From Rhodanobacter sp. PCA2 (lineage in GTDB: Bacteria; Pseudomonadota; Gammaproteobacteria; Xanthomonadales; Rhodanobacteraceae): a stretch of 60,236 nucleotides of DNA. The stretch is taken from positions 1-60,236 of the forward strand of contig NZ_NJIC01000053.1 in the NCBI RefSeq assembly GCF_013620825.1. The letters are read 5' to 3'. Below are positions 4,648-33,808 of the stretch, piece after piece; position 1 is the stretch's first letter, and each line of letters opens with the position of its first letter. A model generated the notes under the pieces. It ran no database searches and was not told the DNA's origin. It was given only the letters and a program-made list of their open reading frames with translations. The position numbers were made by a program, and so were the translations under genes.

Positions 4648-5901
4648 TCAGTGCGGGCGCGCCAGCTCGGCGCGGTCGATCGCGCGACGCAGCGCAAAGA
4701 TCAGCAGCAGCCCGGGCAGCGCCGACAACACGGTGATCACGAAGAAATCCGACCAGCCCACCTTTGGCACCAGCCACGCCGCCAGCGGCCCGAGGAACAC
4801 CCGGCCCACCGCCGCCAGCGAGGACAGCAGCGCGTACTGGGTGGCCGAATAGCGCACGTTGCACAGTGCCGTCACCAGCACCACGAAGGCGGTGCTGCCC
4901 AGGCCGCTGAAGAAATTCTCCGCGCCCACCACGGCCGCCAGCGCCAGCAGGTCGGGGCCGCTGTGCACCAGCCAGATGTAGCCCAGGTTCACCAGCGCCT
5001 GCAGCACGCCCAGCAGCAGCAGCGCCGGGAACAACCGCATCCGCGTCACCACCCAGCCGCCGGCCAGCGCGCCCAGCAGGCCGGCGGCGAGGCCGAAGGT
5101 CTTGTTGATCGCGCCGAGCTGGGTCAGCGTGAACTGCGGCACGCGCAGCAGGAAGGTGGTGGACAGCGACAGTGCGAACGCGTCGGACAGCTTGTACAGC
5201 ACCATCAGCGCCAGCCACGCCAGCGCCAGCATGCCGTAGCGGTGGAAGAAATCGGCGAACGGCTCGATCACCGCCTCAGCGAAATTGCGCGCGGGGCGCT
5301 CGTCGGGCGCCTCCGGCGAGGTGGCGGTGACCGCCATCGCCGCCAGCATCAGCGCGCCCATCAGCCGGTACACCCAGGCCCAGCCCATGTGGTCGGCGAG
5401 GATCAGCGACAGCGCGCCGGACACCAGCATCGCGGCACGATAGCCGCCCTGCGCGGACGCGGTGCCCCAGCCGCGCTCGGCCGGCGGCAGCAGGTCGGTG
5501 CGGTGCGCGTCGTAGGCGGTGTCCTGCGTGGCCGAGGCGAACGCCAGCAACACGCCCAGGAACGCCAGCGTGGCGGCGCCGCCCTGCGGCGTGTAGAAGC
5601 TCATGCTGATCAGCGCGACGCCGCACAGCAGCTGCATCATGAAGATCCAGCCGCGACGGCGGCCCATGAACGGCAGCGGCAGGCGGTCCAGCAACGGCGC
5701 CCACAGGAACTTGAACACGTAGGCCTGGCCGATCAGTGTGATCCAGCCGATGTCGCGCAGGCTCATCCCCGCGGTGGTGAACCAGGCCTGCAGCGCGCTG
5801 CCCGACAGCGCCAGCGGCAGGCCGGAGGCGAAGCCCAGCAGGCCGATGCTGAGGATGCGCCAGGAGCGTCCCGGGGCGACGGCCGCGCCCTCAGTCGGCA
5901 T
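4648..5901 (-). CDS. ampG: AmpG-type muropeptide MFS permease
   Basis: Inner-membrane major facilitator protein importing GlcNAc-anhydroMurNAc muropeptides for recycling. The 417-residue product is hydrophobic throughout (10-12 membrane segments). It starts with the AmpG-like stretch ILSIGLLGFASGLPLAL and contains FKFLWAPLLDR after the second helix and the basic loop GRRRGW. Its first codons overlap the end of xth by 11 bp, so the two are probably translated from one message. The family includes related transporters of unknown substrate, but anmK nearby supports the recycling role. Confidence 0.87.
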   Translation of the reverse strand: MPTEGAAVAPGRSWRILSIGLLGFASGLPLALSGSALQAWFTTAGMSLRDIGWITLIGQAYVFKFLWAPLLDRLPLPFMGRRRGWIFMMQLLCGVALISMSFYTPQGGAATLAFLGVLLAFASATQDTAYDAHRTDLLPPAERGWGTASAQGGYRAAMLVSGALSLILADHMGWAWVYRLMGALMLAAMAVTATSPEAPDERPARNFAEAVIEPFADFFHRYGMLALAWLALMVLYKLSDAFALSLSTTFLLRVPQFTLTQLGAINKTFGLAAGLLGALAGGWVVTRMRLFPALLLLGVLQALVNLGYIWLVHSGPDLLALAAVVGAENFFSGLGSTAFVVLVTALCNVRYSATQYALLSSLAAVGRVFLGPLAAWLVPKVGWSDFFVITVLSALPGLLLIFALRRAIDRAELARPH

Positions 5902-28710: not shown

Positions 28711-28864
28711 TTAGCAAGAGTGGCCGCCGTCGCCGCTGCGGCGAGGAGCCGCGCGGGTCCGTCGCCGACCGCGAAGCGCCGCTGAACACCCCGCATCACT
28801 GCCGGAATACAGGCTAGGCAGCGCGAAAAACGCTCGCTAGGCTGCATCAACGATGAGGACACCC

Positions 28865-30049
28865 ATGACTCCACTGGCGATCGGCGCCTGCACCGTCTCC
28901 TCCGCGCTGGGCTGCGGATTGGCGGCGCAGCACGACGCGCTGCGGCACGGCCGCGGCGGCCTGCGCCCCAACGATTTCGGCAGCGCGCCGCGGCTGGGCT
29001 GGATCGGCCGCGTGGACGGCGTGGAAGCCGTCGCCCTGCCCGCCGGGCTCGCCAACTGGGATTGCCGCAACAACCGCCTCGCCTGGCTGGGCCTGCAACA
29101 GGACGGCTTCCTCGACCGCGTGCACGCCGCACGCGCCCGCTACGGCGCACATCGCGTGGCGCTGCTGCTCGGCACCTCCACCGCCAGCATCGGCACCACC
29201 GAGGAGGCGTATCGCCGGCTCGACGCCGACGGCCGCTTCCCTGTCGACCTGCGCCGCCCCGCCCTGCACGCGCCCGACTCGCTGACTGCGTTCGCCGCGG
29301 CCGCGCTGGGGCTGGAAGGGCCATGCCTCACGATCTCCACCGCCTGCTCGTCCAGCGCCAAGGTGTTCGCCAGCGCGGCGCGCCTGCTCGCGCTGGGCCT
29401 GGCCGACGCCGCCGTGGTGGGCGGCGTGGACAGCCTCTGCGACAACGTGCTGTTCGGCTTCAACGCGCTGGAGCTGATCGCGCCCGCCGGCTGCCGGCCG
29501 TTCGACGCGAACCGCGACGGCATCTCGATCGGCGAGGCGGCCGGCTTCGCGCTGCTGGAGCGCTTGGACGCCGCGCCCGACGCCCCGCGCCTGCTCGGCT
29601 ACGGCGAGGCCAGCGACGCCTGGCACATGTCCTCGCCGCATCCCGACGGCCATGGCGCCGAACTCGCGCTGGACGCGGCGCTGGCCCGCGCGGGGCTGGA
29701 CGCGGCCCGGGTCGACTACGTGAACCTGCACGGCACCGCCAGCCGGCAGAACGACGCGATGGAGGCCGCGCTGGTGGGGCGCCGCTTTCCCGCGCACGCC
29801 CGCGCCAGCTCCACCAAGGGCTACACCGGCCACACCCTGGGCGCGGCGGGCATCGTGGAAGCGACGATCGCGCTGCAGGCGATCGAGCACGGCTTCGTGC
29901 CCGGCAACCTCGGCGCCGCCACGCCCGATCCGGCCTGCGGCCCGCAATTCGCGTGGGAAGGCGAATCGCGGCAGGTCGACGTGGCGCTGAGCAATTCCTT
30001 CGGTTTCGGCGGCAACAACGCCTGCCTGATCTTCGGACGCGCCGCATGA
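28865..30049 (+). CDS. Beta-ketoacyl-ACP synthase (aryl polyene/xanthomonadin type)
   Basis: A 394-residue condensing enzyme that extends acyl chains on an acyl carrier protein. The catalytic triad is intact: Cys in STACSSSAKV, His in NLHGTASRQ and His in [18 protein letters not shown] site precedes the ATG at 28865. Its closest functional kin appear to be the ketosynthases of aryl polyene pigment loci (ApeO/ApeR-like) rather than housekeeping FabF, because a KS-like partner gene, glycosyltransferase, acyltransferase, ACP and XanB2 follow. Its stop overlaps the next start by 4 bp (ATGA). Confidence 0.88.
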   Translation: MTPLAIGACTVSSALGCGLAAQHDALRHGRGGLRPNDFGSAPRLGWIGRVDGVEAVALPAGLANWDCRNNRLAWLGLQQDGFLDRVHAARARYGAHRVALLLGTSTASIGTTEEAYRRLDADGRFPVDLRRPALHAPDSLTAFAAAALGLEGPCLTISTACSSSAKVFASAARLLALGLADAAVVGGVDSLCDNVLFGFNALELIAPAGCRPFDANRDGISIGEAAGFALLERLDAAPDAPRLLGYGEASDAWHMSSPHPDGHGAELALDAALARAGLDAARVDYVNLHGTASRQNDAMEAALVGRRFPAHARASSTKGYTGHTLGAAGIVEATIALQAIEHGFVPGNLGAATPDPACGPQFAWEGESRQVDVALSNSFGFGGNNACLIFGRAA

Positions 30050-30686
30050 ACGCGCTGCAGCTGCACGTCGAAGGCATCGGCCTGTGGTCGCCGTGGGCGG
30101 AGGCGAACACGCAGGCCAGCGTGGTCGGGTCGCGTCCGCTCATCGCCAGCGCCTGGCCGGCCACTTCCACCGCCAGCCGCACGCTTTCCGGTGCGCGGCG
30201 GCCGAGTTGTCGCCCACCCGCTTCCACCATTCCGTGCACAACGCGCCGGCCGGATACTGGACCATCGCCACCGGTTGCCGCGCGCCGTCCAGCGCGGTCT
30301 GCGCGGGCGCCCGCACGTTCGGCGCCGCGCTGCTGGAAGCGGCGACCCAGGCGCTGGCCGAGCGGCGCCCGGTGCTGCTGGCGTGCTACGACATCGCCGG
30401 ACACGGCCCGCTGCTGGAGATGACCGCCTGCACCCACGCCTTCGGCTGCGCCCTGCTGCTGGCGCCGGAAGCCGGCGCGACCACGCTGGCCACGCTGCGG
30501 CTGCAGACCTCGACCAATCACGCTGCATCCACGCCGCTGCCGGCTACGCTCGTTGCCGAAGCGCAGGGCAATCCCGCGGGTGTCGCGCTGGAGCTGCTCG
30601 CGCCGCTGGCCGGGAACGGTGGCCGCTGCCGCCTCGCCATCGCCCCCGCACTGGATCTGCTGGTCGACGTGGAGCGCATCGCCTGA
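30046..30686 (+). pseudogene. Beta-ketoacyl synthase-like gene disrupted by an internal inversion
   Basis: The first ~14 codons (MNALQLHVEGIGLW) read in frame with the 4-bp overlap from the ketosynthase. From about 30209 a different plus frame gives ELSPTRFHHSVHN, then AGYWTIATGCRAPSS and a normal C-terminus to the TGA at 30686. The missing middle is on the opposite strand: the minus strand of about 30085-30208 encodes RRAPESVRLAVEVAG, then QALAMSGRDPTTL and VFASAHGD, which are the expected residues of this KS-like (PF13723-type) family. Flipping the piece in place does not restore one frame, so codons were also lost. The gene is non-functional as sequenced, through mutation or assembly error. 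Confidence 0.75.
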
Positions 30687-31484: not shown

Positions 31485-32438
31485 TCACTCCGCGTCGCGG
31501 CGGTGCGCTGCGTGCGCGCCGGTGTCGGCGGCGGGCGCCGGCTGCCAGAAATCGTGGAAGTTGAACCAGTTGTACGGCAATGCCCGCACGTAGTGCTCCA
31601 GCCGGGCGGCGTAGCGCGCCAGCAGCGCGTCCAGCGCCGGGCCGCGGCTGTCGCGCGGGATCGCCACCCGTTCGGCGAACGGTTCGAACACCAGCCGGTA
31701 GCGATTGCCGCCCAGGTACAGGCCGAAGCACAGCAGCACCGGCACCTGCAGCGCGTTCGCCAGCAGCCACGGCCCCACCGGCAGCGGCGCCGGCGCGCCG
31801 AGGAATTCCACCGTGCGCTGCGCCTCCTGCTCGCCGGCCCGATCGGCCAGCAAGGCCACCATCGCGCCCTGGCGGCAGGCCTCGGCCGCGGCCAGCACCA
31901 CGCTGGCGCCACCTTGCGAGGCATCGATCACCGCCGCGCCCACGTCCGGCGCCAGCTCTTCCAGCAGCTCGGTCATGGCCGGCGTCTTGCCCTTGTCCAG
32001 CACCACGCGCAGCGTCGCGTCGGGGCGCCGCGCACTGAGCGCGCGCAGCGCCTCGAAGCTGCCCTGGTGCGAACCAACCAGCAGCACGCCACGCCCCTCG
32101 GCGATGCGGCGTTCCAGTTCCGGCAGCCCCTCGATCTCGATGCGGAAGCCGCGCTCGCCGTGGGCCAGCAGGTAGATCCGGTCCAGCGAGGTGGCGGCAA
32201 AGGCGTGAAACTGGCGCAGCATCTCCCCCACGCCGGGCGGGCGCCCGAACACGCGCGCGAGGTATTGCCGCGAGGCGCGCCGCTCGGTACCGCGGCGCAG
32301 GAAGAAGTACAGCGTCACCGGATACAGCAGCAGGCGGCCGAAGCGCCGGCCGCCGAGCAGCGCCAGCGTGCGGATCAGCCAGATGGCGAAGCGACCGCCG
32401 CCTTCGCGCTGCTGGCGCCAGTGCAAGGCCTCGCTCAT
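31485..32438 (-). CDS. LpxL/HtrB-like acyltransferase (pigment locus)
   Basis: A 317-residue membrane-associated acyltransferase of the lipid A lauroyl/myristoyl transferase family, with an N-terminal hydrophobic anchor near 18-45 and the catalytic HX4E in GSHQGSFEAL. In aryl polyene/xanthomonadin loci a member of this family transfers the polyene acyl chain to a lipid carrier; the neighbouring ACP supports that over lipid A synthesis. It is convergent with the glycosyltransferase gene (10 bp between stops) and follows the ACP gene by 15 bp. Confidence 0.87.
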   Translation of the reverse strand: MSEALHWRQQREGGGRFAIWLIRTLALLGGRRFGRLLLYPVTLYFFLRRGTERRASRQYLARVFGRPPGVGEMLRQFHAFAATSLDRIYLLAHGERGFRIEIEGLPELERRIAEGRGVLLVGSHQGSFEALRALSARRPDATLRVVLDKGKTPAMTELLEELAPDVGAAVIDASQGGASVVLAAAEACRQGAMVALLADRAGEQEAQRTVEFLGAPAPLPVGPWLLANALQVPVLLCFGLYLGGNRYRLVFEPFAERVAIPRDSRGPALDALLARYAARLEHYVRALPYNWFNFHDFWQPAPAADTGAHAAHRRDAE

Positions 32439-32453
32439 GGCGTCACGGCGGGC

Positions 32454-32726
32454 TCAGCCGGGCGCGCGGTGCGCTTCGACGAAAGCGCTGAGCTCGCGCA
32501 GGCTGGCGAAGATGTGCTTGTTGTCGGGGTGGTCCGAGCGCAACTGGAAGCCGTAGTGCCTGGACACCGCCAGCGCGATCTCCAGCGCGTCGATGGAATC
32601 CAGCCCCAGCTCGCCGCCGAACAGCGGCGCGTCCGGGTCGAGCGTGGCCGGATCGACCGCTTCGAGGTTCAGGCTTTCCACGATCAGGGTGGCCAGCTCG
32701 TGCTGGGCGGCAGTCAATTCGGCCAT
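32454..32726 (-). CDS. Acyl carrier protein (xanthomonadin/aryl polyene type)
   Basis: A 90-residue ACP carrying the growing acyl chain on 4'-phosphopantetheine. The attachment serine is in LGLDSIDALE, slightly different from the DSLDTVE of fatty-acid AcpP. The start is the ATG at 32726. It is the first gene of a leftward ACP-acyltransferase pair and is divergent from the XanB2-like gene, 59 bp away. It probably serves the pigment ketosynthase and acyltransferase. Confidence 0.9.
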   Translation of the reverse strand: MAELTAAQHELATLIVESLNLEAVDPATLDPDAPLFGGELGLDSIDALEIALAVSRHYGFQLRSDHPDNKHIFASLRELSAFVEAHRAPG

Positions 32727-32785
32727 GTGCGTGAAAGCTCGCGAAGCGTCGGTCTGGACAGGAATTTGCGGCCGCGGAGTGTAAC

Positions 32786-33808
32786 ATGGCGTCCTTGTCT
32801 TTCCCGGTTGCAAGTATGACTGAGGGTTGTGAAAGCAGGTGGGTCGAACCCGGCCCGGCGCGCGCCCCGCGCATCTCCTACCGCTTGAACGATGCCGCCG
32901 CCCTGCTGGCCGAACCTGGCACGCTGGCGGTGTTCGGCTTCGGCCATGCCGCCTCCGACCCGGACGATCCGCGCTGGCTGCGCGTGCCGCTGGAAGCGCT
33001 GGATGCGCCCGCGCCGCTGGAAGCCTGGCAGGTCGACGACGCGGTGCAGCACGGCCGCGATGGCGCGCTGCGCTGGTCGGCCGGCGGCGGCTGGCTGTTC
33101 GCCGCGGTCGAACTGGACGAACGCGAGCACGGCGGCCCCGCCGGCGCTGCCCGCGAGGCCTATGCGCAGTTGCGCGACTTCATACGCGGGCGCGCCGAAC
33201 ATCGCGTGCTGCGCATCTGGAACTACCAGGCCGCGATCAACGCGGGCCATGGCGACGCCGAGCGCTACAAGCTGTTCTGCGACGGCCGCGCCGAAGGCTG
33301 CGGCGACTGGTTCGCCGACGGCTACCCCGCCGCGACCGCGATCGGCCACCACGGCGATCCGCACCTGCTGCAGATCTACCTGCTGGCCGGCCCACATGCC
33401 GGCACCGCGGTGGAGAACCCGCGCCAGGTCAGCGCGTGGCGCTACCCGCGCCAGTACGGCCGCACCTCGCCCGGTTTCGCCCGCGCGATGACGCTGCCCG
33501 CGGGGGATGCGCTGGCGATTTCCGGCACCGCCGCCGTGGTGGGCCATGCGTCCGCGCACGAGGGCGACCTCGCCGCCCAGCTGCAGGAAATCCTGGTGAA
33601 CCTGGAAGCGCTGCTGGCCAGCGCGGGCATGCCCGCCGGCTTCGACACCCACGCCCCGCTGAAGGCCTACGTGCGCCACCCCGCCGACGCACCGCGCGTG
33701 CGCGAGCTGCTGCAGCAGCGACTGCCCGGCGTGCCGGTGCTGCTGCTGCAGGGCGACGTCTGCCGCAGCGAGCTGCTGGTGGAACTGGACGGCTGGCGCT
33801 ACGCCTGA
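32786..33808 (+). CDS. xanB2: Chorismatase, XanB2-like 3-/4-hydroxybenzoate synthase
   Basis: Hydrolyses chorismate to 3-hydroxybenzoate (starter of xanthomonadin) and, in Xanthomonas, 4-hydroxybenzoate for ubiquinone. The ~340-residue protein fits the FkbO/Hyg5/XanB2 family. Signatures include RIWNYQAAINAGHGDAERYK, FCDGRAEG, ENPRQVSAWRYPRQYG, TSPGFARAM and ISGTAAVVGHAS. It is often labelled pteridine-dependent deoxygenase-like in databases. The ATG at 32786 has GGAG 6 bases upstream; 32816 is an alternative. Its place beside ACP, acyltransferase and ketosynthase genes marks the locus as aryl polyene. Confidence 0.85.
   Translation: MASLSFPVASMTEGCESRWVEPGPARAPRISYRLNDAAALLAEPGTLAVFGFGHAASDPDDPRWLRVPLEALDAPAPLEAWQVDDAVQHGRDGALRWSAGGGWLFAAVELDEREHGGPAGAAREAYAQLRDFIRGRAEHRVLRIWNYQAAINAGHGDAERYKLFCDGRAEGCGDWFADGYPAATAIGHHGDPHLLQIYLLAGPHAGTAVENPRQVSAWRYPRQYGRTSPGFARAMTLPAGDALAISGTAAVVGHASAHEGDLAAQLQEILVNLEALLASAGMPAGFDTHAPLKAYVRHPADAPRVRELLQQRLPGVPVLLLQGDVCRSELLVELDGWRYA

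What the first reader, a model, noticed from the sequence alone, without database searches (positions are those of the whole stretch)
30046..30686. Ketosynthase-like gene with an internally inverted segment
The plus strand carries the N-terminal codons (30046-30087) and, in another frame, the C-terminal two-thirds (from about 30209). The expected middle is readable only on the minus strand of about 30085-30208 (RRAPESVRLAVEVAG, then MSGRDPTTL and FASAHGD). Simple re-inversion does not restore a single frame, so codons were also lost at both edges. A ~120-bp inversion inside a gene without insertion-sequence remnants is rare and points to template switching during replication, an unusual recombination event, or an assembly error.
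Basis: partly seen in the sequence, partly recalled or inferred. Interest (0 to 1): 0.75.

Follow-up and report, generated by a model that had tools for sequence, protein, structure and literature searches.

The report
Pigment gene broken by flipped segment
In this soil-type bacterium a gene of a yellow-pigment pathway is broken because a stretch of about 110 bases in its middle was copied in backwards and about 150 bases were lost; it is probably a DNA-copying accident in a pathway already being lost, and although neat it belongs to a known kind of mutation.

Summary
Window 30085-30202 aligns on the opposite strand to both flanks in 18 of 20 fetched relative stretches; the other two show no match to the gene, one starting at a contig edge. 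In a second, overlapping set (the best 80 of 301 loci) 80 of 80 are uninverted. The gene is an ApeC-type chain-length factor (PF13723) of a xanthomonadin-like aryl-polyene locus. Against the eight closest relatives, 260 bases became 109 inverted bases, a net loss of 151 that also shifts the frame. No foreign bases are present. The left junction lies on a 9-bp inverted repeat in close relatives, the right one on 4 bp in the three closest. In the four-point scheme it is a 1-3-2-4, inter-strand template switch; similar not-quite-reciprocal inversions are known in starving E. coli. No exact inverted repeat longer than 7 bp now flanks the segment, so it is not a reversible inverton. It is this genome's only PF13723 match, and the pathway's ketoreductase is also wrecked: a decaying pathway. 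Reader supported; artefact unlikely but not excluded without reads. New member of a known kind.

The parts
28853..30049 (+). Intact ketosynthase (ApeO-type by position and NCBIfam PRK09185), overlapping the broken gene's start (ATGA)
   Evidence: open, 398 aa; PF00109/PF02801; NF006618, 504.5 bits, cutoff 407
30046..30093 (+). N-terminal piece of the chain-length-factor gene (MNALQLHVEGIGLWSP), in place
   Evidence: collinear with left flank in relatives; tblastn E=3e-6
30085..30093 (.). Left junction: 9-bp stretch TGGTCGCCG that fits both the left flank and the inverted piece; in close relatives it is an inverted repeat with arms 215 bp apart (start to start)
   Evidence: exact in both arms in 5 of 12 relatives displayed; positions in 4 of 5 relatives; chance
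30094..30202 (-). Inverted piece (alignable 30085-30202), encoding RRAPESVRLAVEVAGQALAMSGRDPTTLACVFASAHGD on the minus strand; carries the Arg pair that aligns with AbApeC Arg30/Arg31 if chain and paper numbering agree
   Evidence: alignment to 7f28_A and 6qsp_B
30193..30202 (.). Right junction: last 4 bases shared exactly by inverted piece and right flank in the three closest relatives (9 of 10 bases in G002); 0-2 bases in eight others, 10 in one
30203..30686 (+). C-terminal piece (AELSPTRFHHS...DVERIA), in place, still open to the ancestral stop
   Evidence: PF13723 profile positions 76-177
30084..30686 (+). Open frame now running through the inverted piece (antisense of the old gene) into the C-terminal piece; possible truncated product, probably non-functional
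   Evidence: 200 aa from GTG; open frame of 218 aa
30682..31474 (+). Family-2 glycosyltransferase; the codon at the ancestral start is CTG here, ATG/GTG/TTG in 14 of 14 relatives compared
   Evidence: (PF00535)
31485..32438 (-). Acyltransferase (PF03279) of the aryl-polyene locus
32454..32813 (-). Acyl carrier protein (PRK09184)
32786..33808 (+). Chorismatase of the FkbO/Hyg5 type (XanB2 name and role as hydroxybenzoate supplier recalled, inferred)
   Evidence: PF21168

Best explanation
The gene was an ordinary ApeC-type chain-length factor. During one round of DNA synthesis the growing strand left its template at the end of the left flank, annealed through the 9-bp inverted repeat TGGTCGCCG to the opposite parental strand about 215 bp ahead, copied about 109 bases backwards, and returned to its own template through a second, shorter homology at the start of the right flank. 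Whatever lay on either side of the copied piece was lost (net 151 bp). In the four-point scheme of template switching this is a 1-3-2-4 event, possible only between strands. The product is a dead chain-length factor: the stretch with the ACP-contact residues inverted, the frame shifted. It persists because the aryl-polyene pathway is decaying in this lineage. Shown: inversion, loss, junction homology on the left, absence of inserted bases, single PF13723 match, broken ketoreductase. Inferred: one replicative event, loss of pigment, relaxed selection.
For: Opposite-strand match between same-strand flanks in 18 of 20 relative stretches, the other 2 without a match to the gene, and in 11 of 14 other genus genomes, the other 3 showing no such match; 80 of 80 loci uninverted. 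Left junction homology of 9 bp: chance 0.0002-0.0005 per random junction in five relatives. Right junction: 4 bp in the three closest relatives, chance of 4 or more 0.035-0.047. No unassigned bases. No second intact copy in the genome: the relative's middle region gives 7 matches, the three disarranged pieces and four short ones of 22-86 bp elsewhere. Inverted piece still reads cleanly on the minus strand and the C-terminal 160 codons have no stop, so the event is recent on this scale. Same-pathway ketoreductase is reduced to residues 3-26 and 203-241 while G002 and G013 keep all 242. Event type and inter-strand logic: passages of PMC7954356. Bacterial precedent: in starving E. coli some inversions are almost but not quite reciprocal, with insertions or deletions of a few tens of bp at the junctions, laid to two template switches within one fork (PMC3161906, passages).
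Against: No reads could be examined; the genome is a 62-contig draft. The pre-event sequence is only approximated by relatives (about 79-88% identical over the flanks of the closest eight); the 9-bp repeat is exact in both arms in 5 of 12 displayed, and one of the five tested (G007) lacks it. Nine-bp inverted repeats within 300 bp are common here (5 to 21 pairs per about 0.9 kb in five relatives), so only its place at the junction counts. The right-hand homology is within chance, and is 0-2 bp in eight of 12 relatives. [quoted passage not shown] for short imperfect repeats one group prefers break-induced replication to template switching (PMC8755829, passages); 1-3-2-4 is not the majority type in apes. 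A two-step inversion plus deletion gives the same product. Relaxed selection on the C-terminal piece is suggestive only: window branch 0.60-1.08, G004 and G014 0.26-0.27, but G002 0.24-0.57 and G013 0.48-0.69.
Confidence: 0.62

Rival explanations
1. [quoted passage not shown]
For: The order of the repeats in relatives (a, b, a', b') means that inversion at a/a' puts the b copies in direct orientation, and deletion between them gives exactly the observed product (geometry).
Against: Needs two rare events at the same place; conservative exchange within 9 bp is inefficient (general knowledge). The second repeat is only 4 bp exact in the closest relatives. No relative examined shows the intermediate.
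Confidence: 0.18
2. Artefact: a chimera made in whole-genome (phi29) amplification or library preparation and carried into the assembly.
For: [quoted passage not shown] No reads available.
Against: The assembly is 99.99% complete with 0.22% contamination in 62 contigs, unlike a typical single-cell genome (general knowledge); two chimeric junctions would have to be fixed in the consensus; no other minus-strand match at the syntenic place appears in the 3.4 to 22.3 kb of the window alignable to five relatives, though G007 gave 10 further minus-strand matches that are not at the syntenic place; no intact copy sits on another contig; an independent lesion in the same pathway makes a real loss plausible.
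Confidence: 0.13
3. A reversible intragenic inverton (phase variation) caught in one state.
For: The left junction lies on an inverted repeat in relatives; intragenic invertons are a recognised class (recalled; seen only as listings).
Against: In the window the longest exact inverted repeat with arms at the two edges is 7 bp, and none of the 25 imperfect pairs shown of 38 joins the two edges; 151 bp have been lost, so flipping back cannot give the old gene; no inverted copy in 80 loci or 18 relatives. Recombinases were not searched for.
Confidence: 0.02
4. A remodelled, functional gene: the frame 30084-30686, which joins a new N-terminus (antisense of the old one) to the old C-terminus, makes a working short chain-length factor.
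For: The frame is open over 200-218 codons and the C-terminal piece keeps a PF13723 match.
Against: The Arg pair described as important for ACP contact in AbApeC (PMC8358021, passages) lies in the inverted piece; about 50 codons are gone; the pathway's ketoreductase is also broken.
Confidence: 0.04

Closest known systems
Not-quite-reciprocal inversions of starving E. coli, laid to two template switches within one fork (PLoS Genet 2011, PMC3161906, passages only)
   Same: Bacterial; inversion whose two junctions lose or gain a few tens of bp; junctions with short homology or inverted-repeat structure; two inverted switches inside one replication fork proposed.
   Different: Found in laboratory isolates selected for lac amplification; here an allele in a natural genome inside one coding gene. 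Sizes of those inversions were not read.
Four-point template-switch mutations, type 1-3-2-4 (Walker et al. PLoS Genet 2021, PMC7954356, passages)
   Same: Order of points (left flank end, left end of copied piece, right end of copied piece, right flank start), single inverted fragment, local, inter-strand only.
   Different: Catalogued there in great apes, where other types are the majority; here a bacterial gene, about 109 bp, with a net loss of 151 bp.
Microinversions between human and chimpanzee (Sci Rep 2022, PMC8755829, abstract and passages)
   Same: Short inverted segment tied to short inverted repeats of 3 to 75 nt; template switching or microhomology-mediated break-induced replication proposed.
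   Different: Those are 17-33 nt and mostly pure inversions between two arms of one repeat; here two different repeat pairs are used and both edges are deleted.
Quasipalindrome-associated template-switch mutations of E. coli (PMC7202029, search listing only)
   Same: Bacterial replication template switching at imperfect inverted repeats.
   Different: Those convert an imperfect inverted repeat in place (recalled); here a long segment is inverted between distant repeats.
phi29 amplification chimeras (BMC Biotechnol 2007, PMC1855051, passages)
   Same: Inverted sequence, intervening deletion, short complementary stretch at the joint.
   Different: Laboratory artefacts described by their joints; here two joints return to the original strand, in an apparently ordinary assembly.
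ApeC / chain-length factor of aryl-polyene clusters (PDB 6qsp_B, 7f28_A; PMC8358021, passages)
   Same: Intact relatives match both chains by profile, are 263-265 aa and sit next to a ketosynthase.
   Different: The window copy is in three disarranged pieces.

Membership tests
ApeC-type chain-length factor (PF13723) - the original gene | Match to PF13723 above the gathering score | tested here: met
   C-terminal piece 68 bits against cutoff 25; 3 of 3 intact relatives match, first one 95 bits
ApeC-type chain-length factor (PF13723) - the original gene | Sequence similarity to solved ApeC chains | tested here: met
   Profile of 3 intact relatives: 6qsp_B E=8e-12, 7f28_A E=2e-6, the only two hits
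ApeC-type chain-length factor (PF13723) - the original gene | Encoded beside an ApeO-type ketosynthase in an aryl-polyene locus | tested here: met
   Overlapping NF006618 ketosynthase, ACP PRK09184, chorismatase, acyltransferase, glycosyltransferase
ApeC-type chain-length factor (PF13723) - the original gene | One continuous reading frame in the window | tested here: not met
   Three pieces on two strands; the two plus-strand pieces in different frames
Template-switch event, type 1-3-2-4 | Inverted fragment replacing the original, flanked by collinear sequence | tested here: met
Template-switch event, type 1-3-2-4 | Short complementary stretches at the switch points | tested here: inconclusive
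   Left: 9 bp, beyond chance. Right: 4 bp in the three closest relatives, within chance, 0-2 bp in eight of 12
Template-switch event, type 1-3-2-4 | Single event during replication | not testable with these tools
   Two-step inversion plus deletion gives the same product
Reversible inverton | Inverted repeats flanking the segment in the present allele | tested here: not met
   Longest exact pair 7 bp, 30093/30217; 151 bp lost
Reversible inverton | Both orientations in a population | not testable with these tools
   No reads held; 0 of 80 loci inverted
Transposon or insertion-sequence rearrangement | Foreign bases at the joints | tested here: not met
   No unassigned base between flank, inverted piece and flank

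The most novel reading that the evidence does not exclude
A natural bacterial fossil of one inter-strand (fork-crossing) template switch more than 100 bases long, primed by a 9-bp inverted repeat that exists because two parts of the gene encode WSP on one strand and HGDQ on the other; if so, coding inverted repeats of this size could help predict where bacterial genes are broken this way.
Probability: 0.5. Interest if true: 0.38.

Novelty: new member of a known kind. Interest (0 to 1): 0.28.

Why it matters
It is a clean example of a small inversion with flanking loss inside a bacterial coding gene, with intact relatives close enough to read both junctions. Such events are likely to be logged simply as pseudogenes or frameshifts (inference), so a systematic scan for minus-strand homology inside broken genes could measure how often natural bacteria mutate in the way described for starving E. 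coli. Locally it suggests that this strain has lost its aryl-polyene (xanthomonadin-like) pigment.

Tried and rejected
Chance antisense similarity: rejected; E 5e-7 to 2e-43 in 18 relatives, the same stretch each time. Intact second copy in the genome: none found. A 51-bp, 80% match of the left-junction stretch (30084-30134) to another contig and to four other genomes is short and gapped in the one case viewed; taken as composition-driven, not followed further. Reversible inverton: rejected on missing repeats and lost bases. Mobile element: no foreign bases. Widespread misassembly of the window: no other minus-strand match at the syntenic place against five relatives, but only 3.4 to 22.3 kb of 60 kb could be compared, and G007 gave 10 further non-syntenic minus matches not looked into. 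Substitution ratios: no firm conclusion. Papers: of the listings, one (PMC3161906) proved on its passages to be a bacterial precedent; the other listed papers were seen as listing only, except the passages. No claim of absence from print is made. Because the interest of the novel case was lowered from 0.42 to 0.38 and of the finding from 0.30 to 0.28. Not done: a genome-wide scan for other such events, a recombinase search, structure prediction.

Full report
WHAT IS THERE. The window is bases 1-60236 of contig C16 of a genome of 3.91 Mb in 62 contigs, 99.99% complete. I call it Rhodanobacter-like because genus relatives can be tied to named records by equal contig length: a Rhodanobacter denitrificans MAG (G002), Rhodanobacter sp. 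C06 (G004) and DHB23 (G007) (inference). Around 30 kb lies a small aryl-polyene locus: ketosynthase (28853-30049), the broken gene (30046-30686), a family-2 glycosyltransferase, an acyltransferase, an acyl carrier protein and a chorismatase of the FkbO/Hyg5 type, between a coproporphyrinogen oxidase gene and one with the domains of glmU (the gene name is recalled).

I aligned window 28.7-31.5 kb to 20 relative stretches. In 18, a left match ends at 30081-30099 (30035 in one), a right match starts at 30176-30210, and about 30085-30202 lies between them on the opposite strand at 70-92% identity. The remaining two, L155 and L156, match only downstream of the gene or at its very end; L156 begins at a contig edge. 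In the genus search 11 of 14 other genomes show the same; G005, G006 and G010 show no such match. With protein queries the middle piece is collinear with the C-terminal piece in 80 of 80 loci (the best 80 of 301 that one search found) and inverted in none, whereas the same query finds it on the minus strand of the window. The two sets overlap; for example L066 is G002.

ANATOMY OF THE JUNCTIONS. Fourteen relatives read from start codon to the conserved ELSPTRF motif in 309 nt (eight), 312 nt (five) or 315 nt (one), the window in 158. Giving the shared bases to the flanks, 260 bp became 109 bp: the inverted piece plus a net loss of 151 bp, not a multiple of three. At the left joint the nine bases TGGTCGCCG fit both neighbours; relatives carry them as an inverted repeat 215 bp apart (4 of 5), exact in both arms in 5 of 12 displayed. 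At random junctions in five relatives a shared tract of nine or more bases occurs with probability 0.0002-0.0005, although 9-bp inverted repeats as such are common here (5 to 21 pairs within 300 bp per about 0.9 kb). At the right joint 4 bases are shared exactly in the three closest relatives (9 of 10 over a wider stretch in G002), 10 in one more distant relative and 0-2 in eight; four or more occur by chance at 0.035-0.047, so this joint alone proves nothing. Every base is accounted for and nothing is inserted.

MECHANISM. The order in relatives is left flank and arm a, lost piece, arm b, copied piece, arm a', lost piece, arm b' and right flank. A growing strand that leaves at a, anneals at a' on the other parental strand, copies back to b and re-anneals at b' gives exactly the window. 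In the four-point notation (PMC7954356, passages) this is 1-3-2-4; as point 2 lies ahead of point 1, the paper's logic allows only an inter-strand switch. That type is not the majority in apes (same passages). In starving E. coli some inversions were almost but not quite reciprocal, with insertions or deletions of a few tens of bp at the junctions, and were laid to template switches within one fork (PMC3161906, passages); this is the nearest bacterial precedent I saw. Microinversions in apes have been laid to template switching or, for short imperfect repeats, rather to microhomology-mediated break-induced replication (PMC8755829, abstract and passages). [quoted passage not shown] A two-step path, inversion at a/a' followed by deletion between the then direct b copies, is geometrically equal and is kept as the main rival. 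phi29 amplification chimeras look alike (PMC1855051, passages). Completeness, the double junction and the absence of other syntenic local inversions in the comparable 3.4-22.3 kb speak against that, but only reads can settle it.

WHAT THE GENE WAS. Intact relatives match PF13723 (3 of 3) and, as a profile, the solved ApeC chains 6qsp_B and 7f28_A. ApeC is the chain-length factor that pairs with ketosynthase ApeO (PMC8253772 and PMC8358021, passages). Arg30 and Arg31 of the Acinetobacter protein, described as important for contact with the acyl carrier protein, align with the Arg pair at the start of the inverted piece if chain and paper numbering agree. A working product is therefore unlikely, although a frame of 200-218 codons runs through the inverted piece.

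A DECAYING PATHWAY. The broken gene is the only PF13723 match in this genome. Of 14 other genus genomes, 11 have a full-length match at another locus (nine of them besides the ortholog of this gene; G005 and G010 have only that other one), G002 and G007 have only the ortholog, and G006 has none. The relative G014 has a second aryl-polyene cluster. The own genome keeps counterparts of its MMPL and ApeI/ApeP dehydratase genes on contig C28. Its ketoreductase there is cut to residues 3-26 and 203-241 in broken frames, while G002 and G013 keep 242 of 242 residues and the G007 stretch has none. Other short-chain dehydrogenases exist, at best 44% identical, and could in principle stand in. The glycosyltransferase start is CTG here, against ATG, GTG or TTG in 14 of 14 relatives compared. 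Two clear lesions on separate contigs and a third possible one suggest that selection for the pigment has been lifted (inference). The inverted and C-terminal pieces still read without stops, so the inversion is recent on this scale; substitution ratios point the same way only weakly, as two relatives overlap the window's value or come near it.

VERDICT. It is a small inversion with net deletion, most likely one inter-strand template switch, that killed a pigment gene. It is a new member of a known kind, chiefly of value as a clean natural bacterial example.

Noticed in passing
L187 (G000:C28) 4658-4821: Ketoreductase of the aryl-polyene pathway reduced to out-of-frame remnants (residues 3-26 and 203-241), intact in G002 and G013; a second lesion in the same pathway on another contig.
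   Followed up: yes
window 30682-30686: The glycosyltransferase start overlapping the broken gene's stop is CTGA, whereas 14 of 14 relatives compared have ATGA, GTGA or TTGA; translation of the glycosyltransferase may be weakened.
   Followed up: partly
G014:C1:3406000-3425999 (L171) and G000:C28 (L187): G014 carries a second aryl-polyene cluster with its own chain-length factor; G000, G002 and G007 have no PF13723 match at such a second locus, and G000 holds a compact remnant with dehydratases.
   Followed up: partly
G007:C14:36800-40600 (L191): No ketoreductase match in the corresponding stretch of G007, suggesting a separate loss of the same gene there.
   Followed up: no
G005:C11:37000-39500 (L155): Glycosyltransferase present, but the ketosynthase and chain-length factor expected beside it give no match in the fetched stretch; this genome has one full-length PF13723 match elsewhere.
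   Followed up: no
window 30084-30134; G000:C5:13840-13889 (L003): A 51-bp, 80% match of the left-junction stretch recurs on another contig and in four other genus genomes; probably composition, not explained.
   Followed up: partly
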